Shown here one piece after another: positions 4,554 to 50,269 of a stretch of 64,000 nucleotides of DNA. Each line of letters begins with the position of its first letter. Position 1 is the first letter of the stretch. The stretch is from Aurantiacibacter odishensis. Lineage in GTDB: Bacteria > Pseudomonadota > Alphaproteobacteria > Sphingomonadales > Sphingomonadaceae. The position numbers and the translations under genes were made by a program. The stretch is taken from contig NZ_QYOS01000021.1 in the NCBI RefSeq assembly GCF_003605195.1, forward strand, positions 62,001-126,000, given 5' to 3'. The notes beneath the pieces were generated by a model, which saw nothing but the letters and a program-made list of their open reading frames with translations, ran no database searches and had not been told where the DNA came from.

Positions 4554-5620
4554 TTGGTGTTCACCGGCTCTGCCGATGCCGTGCCATTTCCGCTCAATGC
4601 TTCCTCGCCCATCTTGCCGAGGTCGGCAGCGATACGGTCGGTCAGGTCATCCTCCAGCAGGCGCGCGGTAACAGCCACGGCGTTGGCGACGCCGTGGGCA
4701 TTGGCGCTGCCATGCGATTTCACGATAACGCCATTCAGGCCGAGGAAGACCCCGCCGTTATGATTGTTCGGATCAAGATGGTGTTTCAGCAATTCGGTAG
4801 CAGGACGCGAGACCAGGAAGCCGATCTTCGAGCGGAGCGAACTGGTGAAGGCGGACTTCAGCAGATCCGTAACGAACCGTGCCGACCCTTCGATGGCCTT
4901 CAGCGCGATGTTGCCGGAGAAGCCGTCTGTCACCACCACGTCCACTTCGCCGCGATTGATCTTGTCGGCCTCTACGTAGCCGTCGAAACGCATGTCGAGG
5001 CCTTCTGCATCCTTCAGCAGTTGCGCCGCACGCTGCAGGTCGTCGGTGCCTTTGATGCTTTCGGTACCGATGTTCAGCAGCCGCACACGCGGCGTACGGC
5101 CCTTGTTGACAATGCGGGAATAGGCGGCGCCCATGATCGCGAACTGCACGAGGTTGCGGGCGTCGCAATCGGTGTTCGCGCCAAGGTCGAGCATGATCAC
5201 ATCATGCTCCTCCAGGGTGGGAAGCAGGGCGGCGAGCGCAGGCCGGTCGATCCCCGGCATCGTGCGCAGGGCCAGCTTGCTCATGGCCATCAGCGCGCCG
5301 GTATTCCCCGCGCTGACGGCAGCACCGCAGGAGCCATCCTTCACGGCCTGGATCGCCAGGCCCATGCTGGTGGTCTTGGCACGGCGAAGCGCGCGGCTGG
5401 GCTTCTCGTCGCCCGATACCACGTCGTCGCAATGCAGGATTTCGGATGCTTCGCGCATGCCGGGGTGATCTTCGAGCGCCTTCTTGATGCGCTCCTCGTC
5501 ACCTACCAGCAGGAACTTGAACTTGTCGTGCTGGCGCCTTGCCAGCGCCGCGCCGGACACCATGACGCGCACGCCATGATCTCCGCCCATCGCATCAACC
5601 GCGATACGGGGCAGGCTCAT
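4550..5620 (-). CDS. plsX: Phosphate acyltransferase PlsX
   Basis: A 356-residue acyl-ACP:phosphate acyltransferase that makes acyl-phosphate for PlsY, the first step of phosphatidic acid synthesis. The N-terminus ([11 protein letters not shown]) and the conserved NTGALM, LLNIG and GFSGNIALK blocks are typical. It sits 30 bp after rpmF and overlaps fabH by 4 bp, the standard rpmF-plsX-fabH arrangement. It acts on the inner face of the cytoplasmic membrane. Confidence 0.96.
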
Positions 5621-5650
5621 GGGCGTACGCTCCTTGGTCCGGTTTGGACT

Positions 5651-5833
5651 TTACAGGCCCTTGGGCTCGATCACCTGGCGGCCGTTGTAGTGGCCGCAGG
5701 CGTTGCAAAGCATATGCGGGCGCTTCAGCTCGCCGCAGTTGGAGCATTCGTGGAAGGCTTCAACCTTCAGCGAATCGTGCGACCGGCGATTGCCCCGGCG
5801 ATGCGGTGATACTTTTCTCTTAGGGACAGCCAT
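5651..5833 (-). CDS. rpmF: 50S ribosomal protein L32
   Basis: A 60-residue bL32. The N-terminus is basic ([20 protein letters not shown]), followed by two Cys-containing zinc knuckles (CSNCGE and [10 protein letters not shown]), so this is the zinc-binding form. It is first in the rpmF-plsX-fabH-ihfA-merR run on the minus strand. About 195 bp of non-coding DNA separates it from the divergent MAPEG gene and probably carries both promoters. No yceD/DUF177 gene lies directly upstream in the window. Confidence 0.97.
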
Positions 5834-6028
5834 GGCGGCACCTGTTCCTTGAATTCGTTCAAAATCTGTGTCGGAGCCGCCCTAGGCCAAGCCAGTCCGC
5901 TGCGCAAGCGCGCCGGAAGACCCATTCGAGGATGCGGCGAAGGCGCGCTCTTTAGCGATTTCTCACGCAGTTGCAAGCGCGCCGGGCTCGTTATAGCGAT
6001 GACTTGGGACGAACGGGGGATATTATCA

Positions 6029-6424
6029 ATGCTGGAACATCATATCGGTCTGCTCAGCGTGGCGATTGCCGCATTGATCAATTTATGGCTTTCGTGGCGG
6101 TGCGGGTCTGCGCGCGGGAAATCGAAGGTGCTTCATGGCGATGGCGGCGACATCGCTTTGCAACGCCACATGCGTGCCCACGCCAACTTCACGGAATACA
6201 CGCCGATCGCACTGCTGCTGATCCTGGTGCTGGACTATTCGGACCAGAACCCCTGGCTGCTGGCCATCACGGCCCTCGTCTTTCTCGTCGGCCGCATTCT
6301 TCATGCCATCGGGATGCAGGCAGACAAGCCCAGTATGCCGCGCATGACTGGCATGCTTACGACGCTGGTCCCCTACCTTATCTGGATCGTCTGGGTAGTG
6401 CTGGTGGTGTTCCAGGTGGTCTAG
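6029..6424 (+). CDS. MAPEG-family membrane protein
   Basis: A protein of about 131 residues with four hydrophobic segments and a polar loop carrying GDGGDIALQRHMRAHANFTEYTP, the signature of the MAPEG (membrane-associated eicosanoid/glutathione metabolism) family. Bacterial members are often glutathione-dependent membrane enzymes; the substrate here is unknown. I placed the start at the ATG at 6029 because a GGGGGA sequence lies 8-9 bases upstream; an in-frame ATG at 5999 would add ten residues. The 3' end overlaps the convergent metallo-beta-lactamase gene by 4 bp. Confidence 0.8.
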   Translation: MLEHHIGLLSVAIAALINLWLSWRCGSARGKSKVLHGDGGDIALQRHMRAHANFTEYTPIALLLILVLDYSDQNPWLLAITALVFLVGRILHAIGMQADKPSMPRMTGMLTTLVPYLIWIVWVVLVVFQVV

Positions 6425-7086
6425 CTACGCGCCATCGCGGCATCGCTCACATAAGGATTGGTCTGCCGTTCCTGCCCGAAGGTACTGGTGGGACCATGTC
6501 CCGGCACGAAGGTGACGTTGTCGCCCAGAGGCCACAGCTTCTGGGTGATCGCGTCAAGCAGGTCCTGGTGATTGCCCATGGGGAAATCGGTGCGCCCGAT
6601 GCTTCCCTGGAACAGCACGTCGCCCACGAAGGCAAAGCCGGTGGCGCGGTGGAAGAACACCACGTGGCCCGGCGTGTGGCCGGGGCAATGCAGCACTTCC
6701 ATCGTCACCTCGCCGAAGCTGACGGTATCGCCGTCGTTCAGCCAGCGATCGGGCTCAAAGATCTCGCAGGCCATCTGGAAACGCGGACCGTCGTCCTCCA
6801 GCCGGCTGATCCAGAACCGGTCGTCCTCGTGTGGCCCCTCGATGGGAAGGCCAAGCTCCTTCGCCAGCATCCCTGCCTGCCCGCAGTGATCGGCGTGGCC
6901 GTGGGTGAGCAGAATCTTCTCCAGCGTCACCCCGGCGCGCTGCACCGCGTCCTTCAACTTGTCGAGATCGCCGCCGGGATCGACCAGCACGCCGCGCATG
7001 GTCTTCGAACACCACACCAGCGAGCAGTTCTGCTGGAACGCAGTGACGGGAATGATGGCGGCGCGGATTGGGGCTTCGTGTGTCAT
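6421..7086 (-). CDS. MBL-fold hydrolase (YcbL/glyoxalase II-like)
   Basis: A 221-residue metallo-beta-lactamase-fold protein with the HxHxDH zinc motif (THGHADHCG, His62/His64/Asp66/His67), a GHTPGH motif and a later GHGPTSTFG carrying another metal-ligand His. Length and motifs fit the YcbL-type glyoxalase II family, which hydrolyses thioesters such as S-lactoylglutathione. It stands alone on the minus strand between the MAPEG gene (4-bp convergent overlap) and a divergent GNAT gene. The exact thioester substrate cannot be read from sequence. Confidence 0.85.
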   Translation of the reverse strand: MTHEAPIRAAIIPVTAFQQNCSLVWCSKTMRGVLVDPGGDLDKLKDAVQRAGVTLEKILLTHGHADHCGQAGMLAKELGLPIEGPHEDDRFWISRLEDDGPRFQMACEIFEPDRWLNDGDTVSFGEVTMEVLHCPGHTPGHVVFFHRATGFAFVGDVLFQGSIGRTDFPMGNHQDLLDAITQKLWPLGDNVTFVPGHGPTSTFGQERQTNPYVSDAAMARS

Positions 7087-7138
7087 GGCATGCTAGTTGG
7101 CGGTGACGCGGAAGCCTTGCAAGACTAGACAGTGCAGC

Positions 7139-7600
7139 ATGACCGCCCTCACCTACCGCGATGCCACGCCTGATGACCTGCCTTTCATAGCCGCCCTCGG
7201 CGATGCAGACGAAGTCGCCGCTGCCCGTGATCCGGCACGTGCTACCATTGCCGAAGAGCAGCGAAAGGCACTCGCGGCAATCACCACCGATCCGAATCAC
7301 CGCCTGCTCGTGGTGGAGCGCGACGGAGAGCGAGTGGGCAGCTTCCAGCTCAGTTTCATCCCCGGGGTATCGCGACAGGGCGCCTGGCGCGGCCAGATAG
7401 AGAGCGTGCGCGTAATCGATTCGCTCCGCGGCCAGGGCATTGGCGAGGCGATGATGCGATGGGCGATCGACCGCTGCGCGGAGAAAGGCTGCGGCGTGGT
7501 GCAATTGACGAGCGACCGCCAGCGCGATGCAGCGCACAGGTTCTACGAGAGGCTGGGCTTCGAGCCGACACATACCGGCTTCAAGATGAAGCTTCTCTAG
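7139..7600 (+). CDS. GNAT-family N-acetyltransferase
   Basis: A 153-residue Gcn5-related acetyltransferase. The acetyl-CoA-binding motif A (VRVIDSLRGQGIGEAMMRWA) and motif B (HRFYERLGFEPTHTGFKM) are clear. The start MTALTYRDATPDDLPF is the usual N-terminal beta-strand and acidic helix, so I chose the ATG at 7139 over the upstream in-frame ATG at 7097. The acceptor substrate is unknown. It converges on the S24 repressor gene with a 3-bp gap. Confidence 0.85.
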   Translation: MTALTYRDATPDDLPFIAALGDADEVAAARDPARATIAEEQRKALAAITTDPNHRLLVVERDGERVGSFQLSFIPGVSRQGAWRGQIESVRVIDSLRGQGIGEAMMRWAIDRCAEKGCGVVQLTSDRQRDAAHRFYERLGFEPTHTGFKMKLL

Positions 7601-17871: not shown

Positions 17872-20043
17872 ATGCCCGCAACCCGCGTCCGCCTCCTCGT
17901 CATGAACGCCGCTCTCGGCCCGCTCGACTATCGGGTGCCCGAAGGCATGGCGGTCGAACACGGCTGTGTCGTCGTCGCGCCGCTGGGGCCGCGTCAGGTG
18001 ACAGGCATAGTCTGGGAAGATGAACGCCTGCCGACCAATCCTGTGCCCGAGGAAAAATTGCGTCCGCTGCTGGGCGTGCTGGACGTGCCGCCGATCGGTG
18101 CGCCACTGCGGCGGCTGATCGAGTGGACCGCGGACTACTACGTCGCCCCGCTGGCGGCGGTGGCGCGCATGGTAATCGCCAGCGGCGGGGCTCTGCGCGG
18201 CCCTGCCACGATGACCGAATACCGGCTGACCGGCGGCACGCCCGAACGCATGACCCCGCAGCGCGCCGCGGCCATAGAGGCGCTGGACGGCGAGCAGGCG
18301 ACGATCCGCGAACTGGCGGGCATCGCGGGCGTATCTGAAGGCGTGCTGCGCGGCCTCGTGAACCAGGGTGTGCTGGAGCCTGTGGAAGTGGACGTCGACC
18401 GCCCCTACCCCCGTGCCGCCGCGGACCATCACCTTCCCGATCTTTCCGATGATCAGCGCGAAGTGGCCGATCGACTGGTGGAACTGGTGGAGGCGCGGGA
18501 ATTTGCCCCCGTCCTGCTCGACGGCGTGACCGGCTCCGGCAAGACCGAGACCTATTTCGAAGCCATCGGCGCGGCCATCGCGCAGGATCGGCAGGTGCTG
18601 GTGATGCTGCCCGAAATCGCGCTGACCGAGGCGTTCCTCTCGCGGTTCGAGGAGCGGTTCGGCGCCCCGCCCGTCGTCTGGCATTCCTCGCTCAAGAGCA
18701 CCGAACGCCGCCGCGCCTGGCGCTCCATCGCCAGCGGGGAGGCGCAGGTGGTGGTCGGCGCGCGCTCAGCCCTGTTCCTGCCTTACGCAAACCTCGGCCT
18801 GATCGTGGTGGACGAGGCGCACGAAATCAGTTTCAAGCAGGACGACGGCGTGCGCTACAACGCCCGCGACGTGGCCGTGATGCGCGCCCGGTTCGAGAAA
18901 TTTCCGGTCATCCTCGCCAGCGCCACGCCCGCGCTGGAAAGTCTGCACATGGCCGACACCGGCATCTACGAGAAGCTGGTGCTGCCGAGTCGTTTCGGCG
19001 GAGCGCAACTGCCCGAGATCCACCTCGTCGACCTTACCGAGGAAAAGCCCGGCTCCGGCCAGTGGATTGCCCCGCCGCTGCGCCGCGCGCTGTTCGACCG
19101 GCTGGAGAAAGGCGAGCAGTCGCTGCTGTTCCTCAACCGGCGTGGCTATGCTCCGCTGACCCTGTGCCGCCACTGCGGCTTTCGCTTCCAGTGTCCCAAT
19201 TGCAGCGCATGGCTGGTGGAACATCGGCTGAGCAAACGCTTGGCCTGCCACCATTGCGGCCACGAAACCGCGCCGCCCGAGAAATGCCCCGAATGCGGAG
19301 AACCCGACTGCCTCGTCGCCTGCGGCCCCGGCGTGGAACGCATCGCCGACGAGGTAGCCGAAATGCTGCCCGAGGCGCGAGTGGCGGTCGTCACCTCCGA
19401 CACCCTCAACTCGCCCGAAAAGGCTGCGGAATTTGTCGCCATGGCAGAGGCCAAGGCCATCGACGTGATCGTGGGCACGCAGCTTGTCACCAAGGGGTTC
19501 CACTTTCCGGAATTGACGCTGGTGGGCGTAATCGACGCCGACCTTGGGCTTGAGGGCGGAGACCTGCGCGCAGCCGAACGCACCTACCAGCAGGTGGCAC
19601 AGGTGGCGGGCCGCGCCGGACGCGGCGCGAAGCCGGGCGAAGTGCTGATCCAGACGCGCCATCCCGAAGCTGCCGTGATCGCAGCCCTCGAAGCAGGCGA
19701 CCGCGACGCCTTCTACGAGGCCGAGACCGAAGCGCGCCGCTATGCCCAGGCCCCGCCCTTCGGCAGGTGGGCCGCGATCATCATCTCCAGCGAGGACGAG
19801 AAGGAAGCGCGCGAGGCGGCGCAGCGGCTGGGCGATACCCGCCCGATCCTCGATGATGTGCAGGTGCTTGGCCCTGCGCCTGCCCCAATGGCCCTGTTGC
19901 GCGGTCGCTACCGTTTTCGCCTACTGCTGAACGCACGTCGCAGCGCGGAACTACAGCAGGTGATTCGCGTTTGGCTTTCAGGGATCGATCATCCCCCGGG
20001 AATCCGGATCGGGGTGGATATCGACCCTTACAGCTTTGTCTGA
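17872..20043 (+). CDS. priA: Primosomal protein N' (replication restart helicase PriA)
   Basis: A 723-residue PriA that reloads the replisome at collapsed forks. The N-terminal 3'-end-binding domain is followed by Walker A (GVTGSGKTE), the DEAH box (VVDEAHEISFKQDDG), and two zinc-binding Cys clusters (CRHCGFRFQCPNC and CHHCG...CPECG). The helicase C-domain ends with QVAGRAGRG. Length is normal for the family. Codons near its 3' end (19947-19971) also spell a perfect EcfG-type promoter consensus for the downstream LOV kinase. Confidence 0.95.
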   Translation: MPATRVRLLVMNAALGPLDYRVPEGMAVEHGCVVVAPLGPRQVTGIVWEDERLPTNPVPEEKLRPLLGVLDVPPIGAPLRRLIEWTADYYVAPLAAVARMVIASGGALRGPATMTEYRLTGGTPERMTPQRAAAIEALDGEQATIRELAGIAGVSEGVLRGLVNQGVLEPVEVDVDRPYPRAAADHHLPDLSDDQREVADRLVELVEAREFAPVLLDGVTGSGKTETYFEAIGAAIAQDRQVLVMLPEIALTEAFLSRFEERFGAPPVVWHSSLKSTERRRAWRSIASGEAQVVVGARSALFLPYANLGLIVVDEAHEISFKQDDGVRYNARDVAVMRARFEKFPVILASATPALESLHMADTGIYEKLVLPSRFGGAQLPEIHLVDLTEEKPGSGQWIAPPLRRALFDRLEKGEQSLLFLNRRGYAPLTLCRHCGFRFQCPNCSAWLVEHRLSKRLACHHCGHETAPPEKCPECGEPDCLVACGPGVERIADEVAEMLPEARVAVVTSDTLNSPEKAAEFVAMAEAKAIDVIVGTQLVTKGFHFPELTLVGVIDADLGLEGGDLRAAERTYQQVAQVAGRAGRGAKPGEVLIQTRHPEAAVIAALEAGDRDAFYEAETEARRYAQAPPFGRWAAIIISSEDEKEAREAAQRLGDTRPILDDVQVLGPAPAPMALLRGRYRFRLLLNARRSAELQQVIRVWLSGIDHPPGIRIGVDIDPYSFV
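19947..19971 (+). promoter_or_regulatory. EcfG-type promoter match (GGAAC-N16-CGTT)
   Basis: GGAAC at 19947-19951 and CGTT at 19968-19971 are separated by exactly 16 bases. This is the known consensus for the alphaproteobacterial general-stress sigma factor EcfG. It lies inside the 3' end of priA, 187 bp before the LOV kinase ATG, on the same strand. A match of nine fixed bases is expected about once in 130 kb per strand by chance, so location is part of the argument. Confidence 0.5.
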
Positions 20044-20158
20044 GCGCCCCTCGCAATCGAGGTCGGGATTGCCATATGTCATAGCTTGAAGTCGATTTGT
20101 TGCTTAACCGGGCAATGAACGATCGGGGTTGAAGAATTTGCAGGAAACCGAAAAGACG

Positions 20159-21247
20159 ATGAACAAGTCGCTCAGTGAACAGAAGCTTCACCCGGCAATC
20201 GACCCCAAGAATCCGCCTCCCTTCCCCGAGGGCATTTCGCGAGAGACGATGGAAGACCTGCCTTTTGCGCTGGTCATCGCGGACGCGCAGCTAGAAGACA
20301 TGCCGCTGATCTACGTCAACAGTGCGTTCGAGCGGATCACGGGATACGATCGCAGCGCGGTAATCGGGCGCAATTGCCGGTTCCTGCAGGGCGAGAATAC
20401 CAATCCCGAAGACGCGAAGGACATTCGCGAAGCGCTGGAAGACGGGCGCGAGATCACTGTCGACATTCTGAACTACCGTTCCACCGGCGAAGAGTTCATC
20501 AACCGGCTGCTGATCTCTCCGATGAGGCAGAACGGCACGATCACGCATTTCCTGGGCATCCAGTCCGAACAGCCCAAGGATCGCGCCATGGCGGAACGCG
20601 CGGCGAAGCTGGACGAGCAATTGCGCGAAGTGCAGCACAGAGTGAAGAACCACCTTGCCCTGCTGCTCTCGCTGATCCGCATGGAATCGAAGAAATCGAC
20701 CGATACCGGCAGTTCGCTGAAAGTGCTGGCCAACCGGGTCGAAGCCCTGAACATGCTCTACGACGAGTTCTCGCGTGCCGGCAGTTCGGGCGCGGACTCC
20801 ATCGCATTGGGCGCCTATGTCTCGCGCGTGTGCAGCGCGCTCAACATGCTCGACGGCAAGCGCGAAGTGCGCATGAACCTCGACATGGAGGAAACCCGCG
20901 CCTCGCTCGATTCCGCGTCGCAGGTGGGCCTGCTGGTCTCCGAGCTGCTCACCAATGCGTTGCAACACGCTTTCGAGGCTCAGCACGAAGGGGTGGTCAA
21001 CGTGCGGCTTTGGCGCGACGACACGGACAAGAACGTGTGCCTCGTCGTGAAAGACAACGGCAACGGCATTCCCGACGATGTCGACTGGCCCAACGACGGC
21101 AGCCTGGGCGCACGCATCGTACGTGAACTGGTGAAGCGGCTCGACGGAAAGCTGGACGTCGACACCGGCAAGGACGGCACCGAGGTGACGATCACCCTGC
21201 CGCTCGCCACGCTCACTGCCGACATCGAAGAAGAGGCCGGGGGCTAG
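20159..21247 (+). CDS. LOV-domain blue-light sensor histidine kinase (HWE/HisKA_2 type)
   Basis: A 362-residue soluble photoreceptor kinase. A LOV/PAS domain (about residues 25-140) contains GRNCRFLQG with the flavin-adduct Cys73. A HisKA_2/HWE dimerisation domain has the phospho-acceptor His160 (QHRVKNHLAL), and the HATPase domain has the N-box (SELLTNALQH, Asn266) and NGNGIP. Blue light should form a flavin-Cys adduct and change autophosphorylation, as in the Erythrobacter litoralis LOV kinases it resembles. There is no transmembrane segment. I chose the ATG at 20159; a TTG at 20129 is the alternative. A photolyase gene follows 15 bp later. No response regulator is adjacent. Confidence 0.92.
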   Translation: MNKSLSEQKLHPAIDPKNPPPFPEGISRETMEDLPFALVIADAQLEDMPLIYVNSAFERITGYDRSAVIGRNCRFLQGENTNPEDAKDIREALEDGREITVDILNYRSTGEEFINRLLISPMRQNGTITHFLGIQSEQPKDRAMAERAAKLDEQLREVQHRVKNHLALLLSLIRMESKKSTDTGSSLKVLANRVEALNMLYDEFSRAGSSGADSIALGAYVSRVCSALNMLDGKREVRMNLDMEETRASLDSASQVGLLVSELLTNALQHAFEAQHEGVVNVRLWRDDTDKNVCLVVKDNGNGIPDDVDWPNDGSLGARIVRELVKRLDGKLDVDTGKDGTEVTITLPLATLTADIEEEAGG

Positions 21248-21262
21248 CGCGCTCTTCGCATC

Positions 21263-22822
21263 ATGGCGCAGCCCGTACTCGTCCCGGTGCTGGGAGACCA
21301 GCTGACCCGCAACCTTGCCTCGATCCGCGGTCGCACCAAGGACGATACCGTCATCCTGATGATGGAGGTGTGGGACGAGGCGACCTACGTGCGCCACCAC
21401 AAGCAGAAGATCGCCCTGATCTTTTCCGCCATGCGACATTTCGCCGCCGAGCTGCGAGATGCGGGCTGGCAGGTCGATTACATCCGCCTGGATGACGAGG
21501 ACAATTCCGGCAGCTTCACCGGTGAAGTCGCCCGCGCCGTGGAGCGCCACGATCCGCGCGCGATCCGCGTGGTGGAAGCGGGCGAATGGCGCGTGCAGCA
21601 GGCCATCGAGGAATGGCCGGACAAGTTCGATTGCGAGGTGGAAATCCTGCCCGACGACCGCTTCATCGCCTCCATCGCCGAATTCCGCGAATGGGCGGAA
21701 GGCCGCGACACCTTGCGGATGGAGTTCTTCTACCGCGAGATGCGACGGAAAACCGGCCTCCTCATGGACGGCGACAAGCCCGAGGGCGGCGAGTGGAACC
21801 TCGACAAGCAGAACCGCGAATCGCCCGAAGACGAGATGGACCCGCCCGAGCGCGCCAAGTTCGAGCCGGACGAGATTACCTGCGAAGTAATCGCGCTGGT
21901 GGAGGAAAAGTTCGCCGACCATTTCGGTAGCCTCGACACCTTCCGCTGGCCCGTGACCCGTGACGAGGCAGAAGAAGCCGCCGACCGGTTCTTTGCCGAG
22001 CGGATCGAGAAGTTCGGCCCCTACCAGGACGCGATGGTGCACGGGCAGGACGACCTCTACCACTCGATGCTGTCGACCAGCATCAACCTCGGCCTGCTCG
22101 ACCCGCTGGAGCTGTGCCAGCGCGCGGAGAAAGCTTACCGCGACGGCAAGGCGCCATTGAACAGCGTTGAAGGATTCATCCGCCAGCTGATCGGCTGGCG
22201 CGAATACGTGCGCGGCTTCTACTGGTATTTCATGCCGGGGCTGGAAAGCGACAACAAGCTGAACGCCCAGCGCGGCCTGCCCGAATTCTACTGGACGGGC
22301 GAAACCGACATGCGCTGCATGGCCGATTGCATCCGCTCCACGCGCGACAATGCCCATGCCCACCATATCCAGCGGCTGATGGTGCTGGGCAACTTTGCCC
22401 TGCTGGCGGGCATCAACCCGCGCGAGGTGCAGGACTGGTATCTGGTGGTTTACGCCGACGCCTATGAATGGGTGGAACTGCCCAACGTGGCGGCGATGAT
22501 CCTCTACGCCGATGGCGGCAAGCTGGCGTCCAAGCCCTATGCGGCGAGCGGCAATTACATCAACAAGATGTCCGATTACTGCCGCGAATGCCGATATTCG
22601 GTGAGCAAGAAGACCGGCGAGGACGCCTGCCCCTTCAACCCGCTCTACTGGCATTTCATGGACCGTCACCGCGAACGGCTGGAACAGAACCACCGCATCG
22701 GGCGCATCTATTCCACGTGGGACCGGATGGATGAGGCGAAGCGGCAGGACTACCTCGACAGCGCGGAGGCCTTCCTCGATACGCTGAAGCCGGCAGGTAA
22801 AGGCTGGGCGCGCGAGGAATAG
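21263..22822 (+). CDS. phrB: Iron-sulfur bacterial cryptochrome / (6-4) photolyase
   Basis: A 519-residue member of the FeS-BCP (deoxyribodipyrimidine photolyase-related) family, which repairs (6-4) photoproducts using FAD and light. The N-terminal Rossmann-like domain (VLVPVLGDQLTRNL) is typical. Four cysteines, Cys352, Cys440, Cys443 and Cys456, sit in the pattern that holds the 4Fe-4S cluster in Agrobacterium PhrB. The C-terminal FAD domain (GWREYVRGFYW, NAHAHHIQRLMVLGNFALLAG) is intact. It starts 15 bp after the LOV kinase and is almost certainly in its operon. Cryptochrome-like signalling is an alternative or added role. Confidence 0.93.
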   Translation: MAQPVLVPVLGDQLTRNLASIRGRTKDDTVILMMEVWDEATYVRHHKQKIALIFSAMRHFAAELRDAGWQVDYIRLDDEDNSGSFTGEVARAVERHDPRAIRVVEAGEWRVQQAIEEWPDKFDCEVEILPDDRFIASIAEFREWAEGRDTLRMEFFYREMRRKTGLLMDGDKPEGGEWNLDKQNRESPEDEMDPPERAKFEPDEITCEVIALVEEKFADHFGSLDTFRWPVTRDEAEEAADRFFAERIEKFGPYQDAMVHGQDDLYHSMLSTSINLGLLDPLELCQRAEKAYRDGKAPLNSVEGFIRQLIGWREYVRGFYWYFMPGLESDNKLNAQRGLPEFYWTGETDMRCMADCIRSTRDNAHAHHIQRLMVLGNFALLAGINPREVQDWYLVVYADAYEWVELPNVAAMILYADGGKLASKPYAASGNYINKMSDYCRECRYSVSKKTGEDACPFNPLYWHFMDRHRERLEQNHRIGRIYSTWDRMDEAKRQDYLDSAEAFLDTLKPAGKGWAREE

Positions 22823-22912
22823 CCGGAAAAGGCGAAAGTTCAGGTTTCAATCAAAATCGGTCTCTCTAAGGTAGCAACTTCATCGAATCGCTGACTTTTA
22901 GGGACTATTGTC

Positions 22913-24508
22913 ATGCGGCTGCTGCTTACCGCCTTTGCTTTCCTGTTCGTGTCCAGCCCGGCCGCTGCCGAGTGGTGGCGGGCGGAAACGAACAACTTCG
23001 TCATCATCTCGGATGACAGCGAGGACGAGGTGCGGCTGTTTGCGTCCGAACTGGAACGGTTCGACATGGCTCTTCGCTACCTGCAGAACATGCCGATCGG
23101 AGAGCCCCAGCCCACCGATGCCACCAAGCTGACCGTCTATCGCTTCGGCGATGTCGGCGACATCGGCCGCATGGCGGGCGCCTCGGGCGTCGCTGGCTTC
23201 TATATCCCGCGCGCAGGCGATTCGGTGGCTTTCAGCCCGGCGCGCGAGGAACGTCGCCGCTCGATGACGGTGGTGAACGTGGATCGCAGCCGTAACCGTG
23301 CCGCGCGGCTGGATGCCGTGAGCGTGTTGCAACACGAATACGTACACTATTTCATGATGCAGCATTTCCCCGCCGCCTATCCCGCCTGGTACGTGGAAGG
23401 ATACGCGGAGCTGCTGGCCACCATCCGTTTCAACGATGATGGATCGTTCCACGTCGGCGATCCGCCGCAATACCGTGCACAGCAGATCTTCCAGCTGCGC
23501 CAGTTCCCGATCGAGGACATGCTGGACCAGGAGCACGAGCTTTCGGGCTACGAGGGTTACCAGTTCTACGGCACCGGCTGGCTGCTGACGCACTACCTCA
23601 ACTTCGATCCAACGCGCCTCGCGCAGCTGAACGAGTATCTTGTCGCCATCGGCCAGGGCGAAGACAGCCTGACTGCCGCGCGCCGCATCTTCGGCGATCT
23701 CGACCAGATCGACCGCGAACTGCGAGAATACCGCGAAGGAAACTTCCCCGGCTACGACGTGACCACGCCCGGCTATGTCGAACCCCAGCCGCAGATGCGC
23801 CGCCTGACGGAGATCGAGGAAGAGCTGATCCGCGAGGAGATGGAACTGCGCCGCGGCGTCGGCAAGGACGACGCCGCCAAGATCGCGCGCGATATCATCC
23901 GCAAGGCAGGCGGTGGCTCCATGCCCGGTCAGTCCCACGCGCTGGGTCTGCTGGCCCGCGCCTATTACTATGCCGAGGACTACGATAACGCCCTGGCCGT
24001 GGGCGAGAGGCTGATGGAGGTGGACGACACGAACATCCTCGGTCCGCTGGTCGCCAGCTGGGTCGCTGCCGAACGCTCCGAAGACGATCCCGCGTGGCAG
24101 GAGCGCGCCGTTCAGTATGCCGCCGATGCGCTGATGATCGACGAGCACGATCCGCGCACCCGCATTGCCTATTACTACAGCTTCCTCGCCGCCGACATGG
24201 AAGTGCCCGAAAATGCGGTGATCGCGCTGGAACAGGCGTTCGACACCGCCGGCAGTGACCCGACCTATCGCGTGTTTCTGGCGCGGCAGCTGCTCTTCGA
24301 AGATCGCCTGGGAGACGCGAAAGCCGTGCTCCAGCCCATCGCCTTTCGAGGTCACAACCAGGGATCGAGCGACGACGATGAGGAGCGCGACCCCACCAAG
24401 CGTCCGCCGAATCTCGACGAGATCATGGCCGAGATCAACAAAGGCGACCGCGATGCTGCGCTGGCGATGATGGACGAACTTATCGACTGGGAAGAGGACG
24501 ACGCTTGA
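22913..24508 (+). CDS. Secreted HExxH protein with C-terminal TPR-like helices
   Basis: A 531-residue exported protein with a cleavable signal peptide (LLLTAFAFLFVSSPAAAE). Residues 141-145 form HEYVH, followed by VEGYAELLA whose Glu could be a third zinc ligand, as in gluzincin metallopeptidases. The first 100 residues (ETNNFVIISDDSEDEVRLFA) resemble the DUF1570-like front of such proteins. The last 200 residues are helical and TPR-like (GLLARAYYYAEDYDNALAVGERL). It is probably periplasmic. Peptidase activity is inferred only. It converges on ada with a 9-bp gap. Confidence 0.7.
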   Translation: MRLLLTAFAFLFVSSPAAAEWWRAETNNFVIISDDSEDEVRLFASELERFDMALRYLQNMPIGEPQPTDATKLTVYRFGDVGDIGRMAGASGVAGFYIPRAGDSVAFSPAREERRRSMTVVNVDRSRNRAARLDAVSVLQHEYVHYFMMQHFPAAYPAWYVEGYAELLATIRFNDDGSFHVGDPPQYRAQQIFQLRQFPIEDMLDQEHELSGYEGYQFYGTGWLLTHYLNFDPTRLAQLNEYLVAIGQGEDSLTAARRIFGDLDQIDRELREYREGNFPGYDVTTPGYVEPQPQMRRLTEIEEELIREEMELRRGVGKDDAAKIARDIIRKAGGGSMPGQSHALGLLARAYYYAEDYDNALAVGERLMEVDDTNILGPLVASWVAAERSEDDPAWQERAVQYAADALMIDEHDPRTRIAYYYSFLAADMEVPENAVIALEQAFDTAGSDPTYRVFLARQLLFEDRLGDAKAVLQPIAFRGHNQGSSDDDEERDPTKRPPNLDEIMAEINKGDRDAALAMMDELIDWEEDDA

Positions 24509-24517
24509 GGCGACCGG

Positions 24518-25552
24518 CTACTTCTTCTCGCGCTCGCGCCGCAGAAGTTCGGCCTTGATCTTGGTGCCATAGGCATAGCCGCCCAGCCTGCCGTCCGCCG
24601 CGATCACCCGGTGACACGGGATCAGCACGGCGATGTTGTTCGCCCCGTTGGCCCCGCCCACCGCGCGGCTGGCCTTGGGTGAGCCCAGCGCAGCCGCGAG
24701 TTCACCGTAGCTGCGCGTCTCTCCCGGCGGGATGCGGCGCAGTTCGTCCCATACGCGCTGCTGGAATGCCGTGCCCTGCACGTCCAGCGGAATGTCCTGT
24801 CCCGTGCCGGGTTTCTCGACCGCCGCCGTTACTTCCTCGAAAAGGGCAGTGAACGAGGCGTGCCCCTCCATCAGCTCGGCGTTGGGGAAGCGCGCCCGCA
24901 GGTCGTCCTCGCCTTCGTTGAACGACAGGCGGCACACCCCCTTCTCGGTCGCGGCCACCAGCATCGGCCCCAGCGTCGTCTCGATCAAGGCAAAATGGAC
25001 CTTTTGTCCTCTGCCACCATCCCGGCGTTCGCTCGCTGCCATGCCCTGCCCTTTCATGTCCTCGTAAAACCGCGAGGGTCCTGAATATCCTGCTGCATAT
25101 ATCGCGTCCGTCACCCGCTCCCCGCCGACCAGCGCCTCTCCCGCCCGCTCCCGCCGTAATGCGCGCGCGTAGGAGGCGGGAGACAGGCCGACGGCGCGGG
25201 TAAACACCCGTTGCAGGTGCGTGGGCGAATAGCCGGTGATCGCCCCCAGTTTCTCCAGCGACACCGGCTTTGTCGCATCGCGGAGCAATTCCAGCACCCG
25301 TAACACGGCTGCTTCCTCGCGCGATTGCTGGTCCGGCGCGCACCGCTTGCACGGGCGCAGACCCGCCGCCTCGGCATCGAGCGGGGTCGCATAGAAACGC
25401 ACGTTCTGCCGCTTTGGCGCACGGGCCGGACACGAGGGACGGCAATAGATGCCGGTCGAATGCACGCCCGTAACGAAGGCGCCGTCGAAGCGGCGATCCT
25501 TCGCCAGAGCAATGCGCCAGCGGTCTTCATCGGAAAGGTCGTGGTCGGTCAT
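24518..25552 (-). CDS. ada: Bifunctional DNA-repair methyltransferase/transcriptional regulator Ada
   Basis: A 344-residue protein with all Ada parts. The N-terminal zinc domain carries the methylphosphotriester acceptor Cys region (GIYCRPSCPAR, then CKRCAPDQQ). An AraC-type helix-turn-helix follows (ITGYSPTHLQRVFTRAVGLSP). The C-terminal O6-methylguanine methyltransferase has PCHR (LIPCHRVIAADG). It repairs alkylated DNA and, once methylated, activates the adaptive response. It is divergent from a protease gene, with 82 bp between starts. Confidence 0.93.
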   Translation of the reverse strand: MTDHDLSDEDRWRIALAKDRRFDGAFVTGVHSTGIYCRPSCPARAPKRQNVRFYATPLDAEAAGLRPCKRCAPDQQSREEAAVLRVLELLRDATKPVSLEKLGAITGYSPTHLQRVFTRAVGLSPASYARALRRERAGEALVGGERVTDAIYAAGYSGPSRFYEDMKGQGMAASERRDGGRGQKVHFALIETTLGPMLVAATEKGVCRLSFNEGEDDLRARFPNAELMEGHASFTALFEEVTAAVEKPGTGQDIPLDVQGTAFQQRVWDELRRIPPGETRSYGELAAALGSPKASRAVGGANGANNIAVLIPCHRVIAADGRLGGYAYGTKIKAELLRREREKK

Positions 25553-50243: not shown

Positions 50244-50269
50244 AACGTGCCATCGGCTTGACTTGTTCC
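50244..50269 (-). promoter_or_regulatory. EcfG-type promoter match (GGAAC-N17-CGTT) upstream of the racemase
   Basis: On the minus strand GGAAC (50269-50265) and CGTT (50247-50244) are 17 bases apart, within the spacing accepted for EcfG promoters. It lies 77 bp before the racemase TTG start, in the 106-bp gap after pntB. No other supporting signal is present. Confidence 0.35.

What the first reader, a model, noticed from the sequence alone, without database searches (positions are those of the whole stretch)
20159..22822. LOV photoreceptor kinase and iron-sulfur (6-4) photolyase in one operon
A soluble LOV-HWE kinase with its flavin Cys73 and phospho-His160 intact is followed 15 bp later by a PhrB-type photolyase with all four cluster cysteines (352, 440, 443, 456). 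Seen directly: the adjacency and motifs. Known: LOV-HWE kinases in Erythrobacter and Caulobacter can feed the PhyR/EcfG stress pathway, and FeS-BCP proteins repair (6-4) lesions or act as cryptochromes. Inferred: a light-sensing and light-repair module in which blue light signals in parallel with photorepair, or the cryptochrome and LOV proteins act in one pathway. The kinase's response regulator is not adjacent.
Basis: partly seen in the sequence, partly recalled or inferred. Interest (0 to 1): 0.7.

Follow-up and report, generated by a model that had tools for sequence, protein, structure and literature searches.

The report
Light-sensing kinase beside UV-repair photolyase gene
Two intact light-related genes, a blue-light sensor kinase and a light-powered DNA repair enzyme, sit next to each other in this bacterium, but relatives show that they mostly share the same changeable stretch of chromosome and touch directly in only a few species, so a dedicated partnership is possible but not shown.

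Summary
In detail: an intact LOV-HWE histidine kinase (20159-21247; Cys73, His160) ends 15 bp before an intact iron-sulfur (6-4)-type photolyase (21263-22822; four cluster cysteines and nine other checked PhrB positions kept). The kinase belongs to a sister subfamily of EL346, not to EL346 itself. In the 40 held genomes of the genus the kinase occurs in 15 and phrB in 27, without association (both in 11; Fisher p=0.73). The kinase goes with priA rather than phrB: it lies downstream of priA in 14 of 15, including four genomes without phrB, and directly precedes phrB in 3 of 11. In other genomes phrB follows priA, a TPR-like gene or something else. The pairing is therefore real but lineage-limited, in a high-turnover priA-ada interval. 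Two results keep a coupling alive: the three genomes with direct adjacency, and none of the other 35 compared, carry an EcfG-type (general stress) promoter-like motif at one place in the priA 3' end; and in two relatives a different LOV sensor (LOV-LuxR) lies near phrB (chance P about 0.06). Best reading: a light sensor and a repair enzyme acting independently, probably co-transcribed here, possibly under the stress sigma factor. Transcription, light response and phosphotransfer are untested.

The parts
17872..20043 (+). priA (primosomal helicase); the fixed anchor of the locus; the kinase lies downstream of it in 14 of 15 kinase-bearing genus genomes
   Evidence: Pfam PriA_C, PriA_3primeBD; gene order
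19947..19971 (+). EcfG-type promoter-like motif GGAAC-N16-CGTT inside the priA 3' end, 212 bp before the kinase ATG; same place in G157 and G174 only (3 of 38 genomes compared)
   Evidence: pattern match; background 4 of 372 other genes; function not shown
20159..21247 (+). LOV-HWE/HisKA2 histidine kinase, 362 aa, Cys73 and His160; sister subfamily of EL346
21248..21262 (+). 15-bp gap between kinase and photolyase
   Evidence: no + strand terminator-like site; RNA fold of the junction not better than shuffles, z -0.04
21263..22822 (+). phrB, iron-sulfur (6-4)-type photolyase (FeS-BCP), 519 aa
   Evidence: Pfam PF04244, PDB 4dja 630 bits, 13 of 13 checked PhrB positions
22913..24508 (+). TPR-like secreted protein ('TPR-A'); found downstream of phrB only; a distant relative ('TPR-B') lies upstream of phrB in other genomes
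   Evidence: Pfam TPR_12 below its cut-off; tree; order
24518..25552 (-). ada-type O6-methylguanine methyltransferase, far border of the variable interval
   Evidence: Pfam; gene order

Best explanation
In this strain a blue-light sensor kinase and a (6-4) photolyase are neighbours and probably share a transcript, but they act independently. Inferred: the kinase forms a flavin-Cys73 adduct in blue light, autophosphorylates His160 and passes phosphate to receivers encoded elsewhere (PhyR at G000:C20:264966-265760; the LovR-like receiver on contig C25), feeding the EcfG general stress response; the photolyase uses blue light itself to repair (6-4) photoproducts. Shown: both are long-term tenants of one gene-turnover interval between priA and ada; the kinase is tied to priA, phrB's upstream neighbour changes repeatedly, and direct contact is lineage-limited. 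If there is coupling here, it is joint transcription, possibly from an EcfG-type promoter in the priA 3' end.
For: Intact domains and residues. Kinase downstream of priA in 14 of 15 genomes (a 299-aa ORF intervenes in one, G185), including 4 without phrB. phrB upstream neighbour: kinase 3, TPR-B 5, five genes then kinase 2, elsewhere 1 among the 11 genomes with both; priA at 21-34 bp 4, TPR-B 9, other 3 among the 16 with phrB only. Fitch on a 30-tip PriA tree: 6 changes of phrB's upstream neighbour, 3 of kinase presence at priA. No co-occurrence: 11/4/16/9, p=0.73. PhyR and a receiver next to a second LOV kinase exist in the genome.
Against: The priA-end EcfG-type motif is found in exactly the three genomes with adjacency (3 of 38), and LOV-LuxR genes lie near phrB in G161 and G050, both of which would fit a selected link. 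Several nodes of the PriA tree are weak (0.11-0.48), so the number of origins of the adjacency is uncertain. No transcript, flavin or phosphotransfer data.
Confidence: 0.6

Rival explanations
1. Dedicated module: selection keeps a blue-light sensor with phrB so that photorepair is raised when light is sensed. An EcfG-type promoter in the priA end drives kinase and phrB together; the kinase phosphorylates PhyR, which frees EcfG: a self-amplifying loop.
For: EcfG-type motif in the priA end in the 3 adjacency genomes and at an unrelated intergenic place 170 bp before the kinase in G178 and G185; background 4 of 372 other genes; the same motif lies 56 bp before phyR in this genome. A different LOV sensor beside phrB in G161 (103 bp) and 1.9 kb from phrB in G050. 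Precedent for LOV control of a photolyase gene through LitR in Pseudomonas (PMC9758184, passages).
Against: Adjacency in 3 of 11 genomes; no co-occurrence; kinase kept without phrB in 4 genomes; no LOV signature in 78 phrB neighbourhoods across the class; PhrB relatives in 0 of 80 named LOV-kinase loci. Motif and proximity counts are small (P about 0.06 for proximity), and the priA-end motif lies in coding sequence.
Confidence: 0.25
2. Mere neighbours: each gene has its own promoter and the 15-bp gap is accidental.
For: phrB keeps its place beside priA, TPR-B or others without the kinase; gaps in the three adjacency genomes differ (15, 51, 36 bp).
Against: Same strand, 15 bp, no + strand terminator-like or sigma-70-like site in the scanned region.
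Confidence: 0.1
3. The photolyase homologue is a cryptochrome-like receptor that acts with the kinase in one light-sensing pathway.
For: CryB-like members exist in the FeS-BCP group (PMC3204975, passages; PDB 3zxs hit).
Against: All repair residues checked are kept, including His368 (PhrB His366) and Tyr426 (Tyr424), and it scores higher to PhrB than to CryB (630 against 560 bits). No association with the kinase.
Confidence: 0.05

Closest known systems
EL346 of Erythrobacter litoralis (blue-light-activated histidine kinase 2, PDB 4r3a)
   Same: Same LOV - HWE/HisKA2 - HATPase layout, aligned over residues 28-353 with few indels, 305 bits; LOV Cys and phospho-His kept; orphan without adjacent regulator, as reported for EL346 (PMC4438053, passages).
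   Different: Not the ortholog: three genus members (G157, G177, G180) carry a second kinase besides the priA-linked one; the G157 one scores 484 bits to 4r3a and it and the G180 one branch apart from the priA-linked kinases. Oligomeric state and light response unknown.
PhrB of Agrobacterium fabrum (FeS-BCP, (6-4) photolyase)
   Same: 630 bits over almost the whole length; 13 of 13 checked positions identical.
   Different: Antenna chromophore and activity untested; sits in the priA-ada interval here.
LovK-LovR / LOV-HK to PhyR general stress systems
   Same: HWE LOV kinase; PhyR in the genome; a second LOV kinase followed 31 bp later by a receiver.
   Different: This kinase has no adjacent receiver; partner unknown.
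SB-LOV / LitR / phrB light-inducible genes of Pseudomonas mendocina
   Same: A LOV sensor controls photolyase expression (PMC9758184, passages).
   Different: There a short LOV acts through LitR and another photolyase; no histidine kinase. The G050 neighbourhood (phrB, amine-oxidase-like, folE, LOV-LuxR) resembles that gene set more than the window does.

Membership tests
EL346-like LOV histidine kinases | LOV core with adduct-forming Cys (NCRFLQ) | tested here: met
   GRNCRFLQG, Cys73; invariant in 9 aligned relatives
EL346-like LOV histidine kinases | HWE/HisKA2 dimerisation box with phospho-His and HATPase | tested here: met
   HisKA_2, HWE_HK and HATPase_c over cut-off; His160 invariant in 9
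EL346-like LOV histidine kinases | Orthology to EL346 itself | tested here: not met
   305 bits to 4r3a against 484 for the second kinase of G157; separate clade
EL346-like LOV histidine kinases | Flavin binding, light-driven autophosphorylation, monomeric state | not testable with these tools
   needs purified protein
FeS-BCP prokaryotic (6-4) photolyases | Four cluster cysteines with the family spacing | tested here: met
   352/440/443/456; spacing as described in PMC3204975 (passages)
FeS-BCP prokaryotic (6-4) photolyases | Repair and electron-transfer residues His366, Trp342, Trp390, Tyr424, Tyr430 of PhrB | tested here: met
   368 H, 344 W, 392 W, 426 Y, 432 Y; roles from PMC4619345 (abstract and passages)
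FeS-BCP prokaryotic (6-4) photolyases | (6-4) repair in light, DMRL antenna | not testable with these tools
   needs enzyme assay
Conserved kinase-phrB operon | Adjacency kept across relatives that have both genes | tested here: not met
   3 of 11 in the genus; not adjacent in G062 and G099 of the family
Conserved kinase-phrB operon | Co-occurrence of the two genes | tested here: not met
   11/4/16/9 of 40, Fisher p=0.73
EcfG regulon | EcfG-type promoter upstream of the kinase | tested here: inconclusive
   motif present at 19947 but inside priA coding sequence; 3 of 38 at that site; background 4 of 372

The most novel reading that the evidence does not exclude
In this group of Sphingomonadales blue-light sensors of different build (EL346-type LOV kinase; LOV-LuxR regulator) are repeatedly drawn to phrB, and in three species an EcfG promoter at the end of priA drives a kinase-phrB transcript, giving a self-amplifying light -> kinase -> PhyR -> EcfG -> kinase plus photolyase loop that raises photorepair before damage builds up.
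Probability: 0.15. Interest if true: 0.6.

Novelty: new member of a known kind. Interest (0 to 1): 0.35.

Why it matters
If the coupling were real it would tie photorepair to the alphaproteobacterial general stress response through a light-gated kinase, which is directly testable with simple reporter assays. If not, the case is a useful caution: two light-related genes 15 bp apart look like a module, yet relatives show independent tenants of a changeable interval. The separation of a priA-linked sister subfamily from EL346 also gives new homologues for the open question of which LOV kinases are monomeric.

Tried and rejected
Conserved operon: rejected on gene order and co-occurrence. An early reading that the TPR-like gene hops across phrB was dropped when the tree split it into two distant families, TPR-A downstream and TPR-B upstream of phrB. 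A conserved regulatory element between priA and kinase: the alignment showed none. A hairpin at the junction: not better than shuffles. sigma-70 promoter: 0 found against 0.5 expected. Photolyases near other LOV kinases: PhrB relatives in 0 of 80 named loci; photolyase-type FAD-binding genes in 3 of 80 flanks (L219, L230, L181), too few to claim a pattern and in one (L181) beside a LOV protein without kinase domains. Class sample: kinase in 5 of 289 (E <= 1e-30), phrB in 84 of 289; of the three genomes with both, only the window's has them adjacent. In some searches only 13 or 7 candidates per genome were scored, so those kinase counts are lower bounds. No paper joining a LOV histidine kinase and a photolyase in an operon was seen in searches (held open-access library only; listings, and passages of the papers cited). 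PMC6703928 and PMC6421462 are not held. Structure prediction, fold search and the large protein search were not run.

Full report
OBSERVATION. The window lies at G000:C21:62001-126000 of a 3.19-Mb genome. The kinase (20159-21247) and the photolyase (21263-22822) are intact, on one strand, 15 bp apart. The kinase has PAS_9, HisKA_2/HWE_HK and HATPase_c domains; its nearest solved relative is EL346, 4r3a (305 bits). It stays below the NCBIfam cut-off for blue-light histidine kinase (178.9 against 450 bits). The photolyase matches PhrB 4dja at 630 bits and keeps 13 of 13 PhrB positions checked: the four cysteines and Ile51, Trp342, His366, Leu370, Trp390, Tyr391, Tyr424, Tyr430, Tyr460. The roles of His366, Trp342, Trp390, Tyr424 and Tyr430 come from PMC4619345 (abstract and passages). 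It is therefore most likely a working (6-4) photolyase (inference).

WHICH KINASE. Three other genus members (G157, G177, G180) carry, besides the priA-linked kinase, a second one 43-46% identical to the window's. The second kinase of G157 scores 484 bits to 4r3a, and in a tree the G157 and G180 ones stand apart from the priA-linked clade (the G177 one was not called and is not in the tree; one node in the EL346 part has support 0.002, the split of the priA-linked group with its G062 relative has 0.82). The window kinase is thus a sister of EL346, not its ortholog.

GENE ORDER IN THE GENUS. All 40 held genomes were searched: kinase at E <= 1e-60 in 15, phrB in 27, priA in 38. Both kinase and phrB: 11; kinase only 4; phrB only 16; neither 9; Fisher p=0.73. 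Seven of the 40 are below 90% completeness or above 5% contamination (33 of 40 pass), so some absences may be gaps. The kinase lies downstream of priA in 14 of 15 (a 299-aa ORF intervenes in G185; the exception is G171, with a 55%-identical kinase elsewhere). Among the 11 with both genes: kinase directly before phrB in 3 (window 15 bp, G157 51 bp, G174 36 bp), TPR-B between in 5 (kinase-TPR-B 150-231 bp, TPR-B-phrB 136-258 bp), five genes between in 2 (G159, G168), elsewhere in 1 (G171). In the four kinase-only genomes the order is priA-kinase-ada (G160, G167, G183) or priA-kinase with no called ada (G182). Among the 16 phrB-only genomes, phrB directly follows priA at 21-34 bp in 4, follows TPR-B in 9 (in G103 at another place in the genome, away from priA), and other sequence in 3. 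TPR-A (downstream of phrB) and TPR-B (upstream) are distant families. On a 30-tip PriA tree, Fitch parsimony needs 6 changes of phrB's upstream neighbour and 3 of kinase presence at priA; G000 is sister to G178+G185 (support 0.97), which have TPR-B between, while nodes joining G157 and G174 are weak (0.11, 0.48). The three adjacencies are thus not one well-supported clade: old arrangement kept, independent losses of TPR-B, or exchange of a block are all open.

BEYOND THE GENUS. In 149 genomes of the family phrB is in 83 and close full-length relatives of this kinase in three, G000, G062 (56%) and G099 (47%); in the last two the genes are on different contigs or about 0.6 Mb apart. In 289 genomes of the class: kinase 5, phrB 84, adjacency only in G000. 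Among 80 named LOV-kinase loci (best of a capped list) PhrB relatives lie in 0 of 80 flanks of up to 6 kb.

IS THERE A PULL BETWEEN LOV SENSORS AND phrB? A DNA signature for the LOV core was scanned in the family and genus. Leaving out the priA-linked kinases, LOV genes lie within 5 kb of phrB in G161 (LOV-LuxR protein, 103 bp downstream, same strand) and in G050 of another genus (LOV-LuxR, 1.9 kb downstream, with an amine-oxidase-like gene and GTP cyclohydrolase I between). That is 2 against 0.41 expected, P about 0.06 (distances read by eye). In 78 of the 84 phrB neighbourhoods of the class sample (the other six not fetched: G000 and G041 already known, G410, G440, G441 and G214 left out) no LOV signature was found within about 4 kb (some regions cut by contig ends). 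So the pull, if any, is weak and local.

PROMOTER. A GGAAC-N16-CGTT motif, the EcfG type (PMC6599016 gives GGAAC-N17-20-GTT for Sphingomonas melonis; passages), lies at 19947-19971 inside the priA 3' end. At this place it occurs in G000, G157 and G174 and in none of the other 35 genomes compared (29 of the 40 genus genomes plus 9 of the family). G178 and G185 have an unrelated intergenic copy about 170 bp before the kinase. The strict motif stands within 250 bp of 4 of 372 other genes of these loci and of 3 of 15 kinase entries (the G157 and G174 starts were called too far inside, so their sites fell outside). In this genome the same motif stands 56 bp before phyR and 81 bp before the receiver gene beside it. 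Against: the site is coding sequence, 212 bp from the kinase ATG, and the 64-kb window holds one more copy at 50269 on the other strand.

SIGNAL PARTNERS. The genome holds 24 receiver matches, among them PhyR (NCBIfam PhyR family 367 bits; PhyR_sigma2) and a receiver 31 bp after a second LOV-HWE kinase on C25. EL346 phosphorylates PhyR and LovR in vitro and is itself an orphan (PMC4438053, passages); transfer of this to the window kinase is inference.

VERDICT. The pair is real and both proteins look functional. The evidence favours independent function with probable co-transcription in a few species over a conserved module.

Noticed in passing
L248:4898-5485 (G161), phrB at 5589-7145: A 196-aa LOV-LuxR regulator (EL222-like layout) lies 103 bp downstream of phrB in another species of the genus; in the window's genome a similar LOV-LuxR gene is elsewhere (L144:558-1160).
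   Followed up: partly
L253:4996-8950 (G050): phrB, amine-oxidase-like gene, GTP cyclohydrolase I and LOV-LuxR regulator together, resembling the LitR-controlled light gene set of Pseudomonas.
   Followed up: partly
L219:5887-8267 (Jannaschia sp. LMIT008): A LOV-HWE kinase is followed 50 bp later by a 416-aa protein with only the photolyase FAD-binding domain (PF03441), a possible cryptochrome-like half; a relative lies 2.4 kb from a LOV kinase in L230.
   Followed up: partly
L181:1125-4683 (Hellea MAG): A LOV protein aligned to the kinase but without HisKA/HWE or HATPase matches, beside a distant photolyase-like gene and Crp-like regulators (the last by eye).
   Followed up: partly
window 17872-25552 and relatives: The priA-ada interval is a site of gene turnover: two distant TPR-like families, a four-gene block and other genes come and go while the borders stay.
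   Followed up: partly
G000:C25:15031-16339 (L072): Second LOV-HWE kinase with a single-domain receiver gene 31 bp downstream, LovK-LovR-like.
   Followed up: no
G000:C11:396058-396642 (L242): The genome's only PF03441 match, a class-I-like photolyase of 483 aa, is followed by a methyltransferase-like gene (the latter by eye).
   Followed up: no
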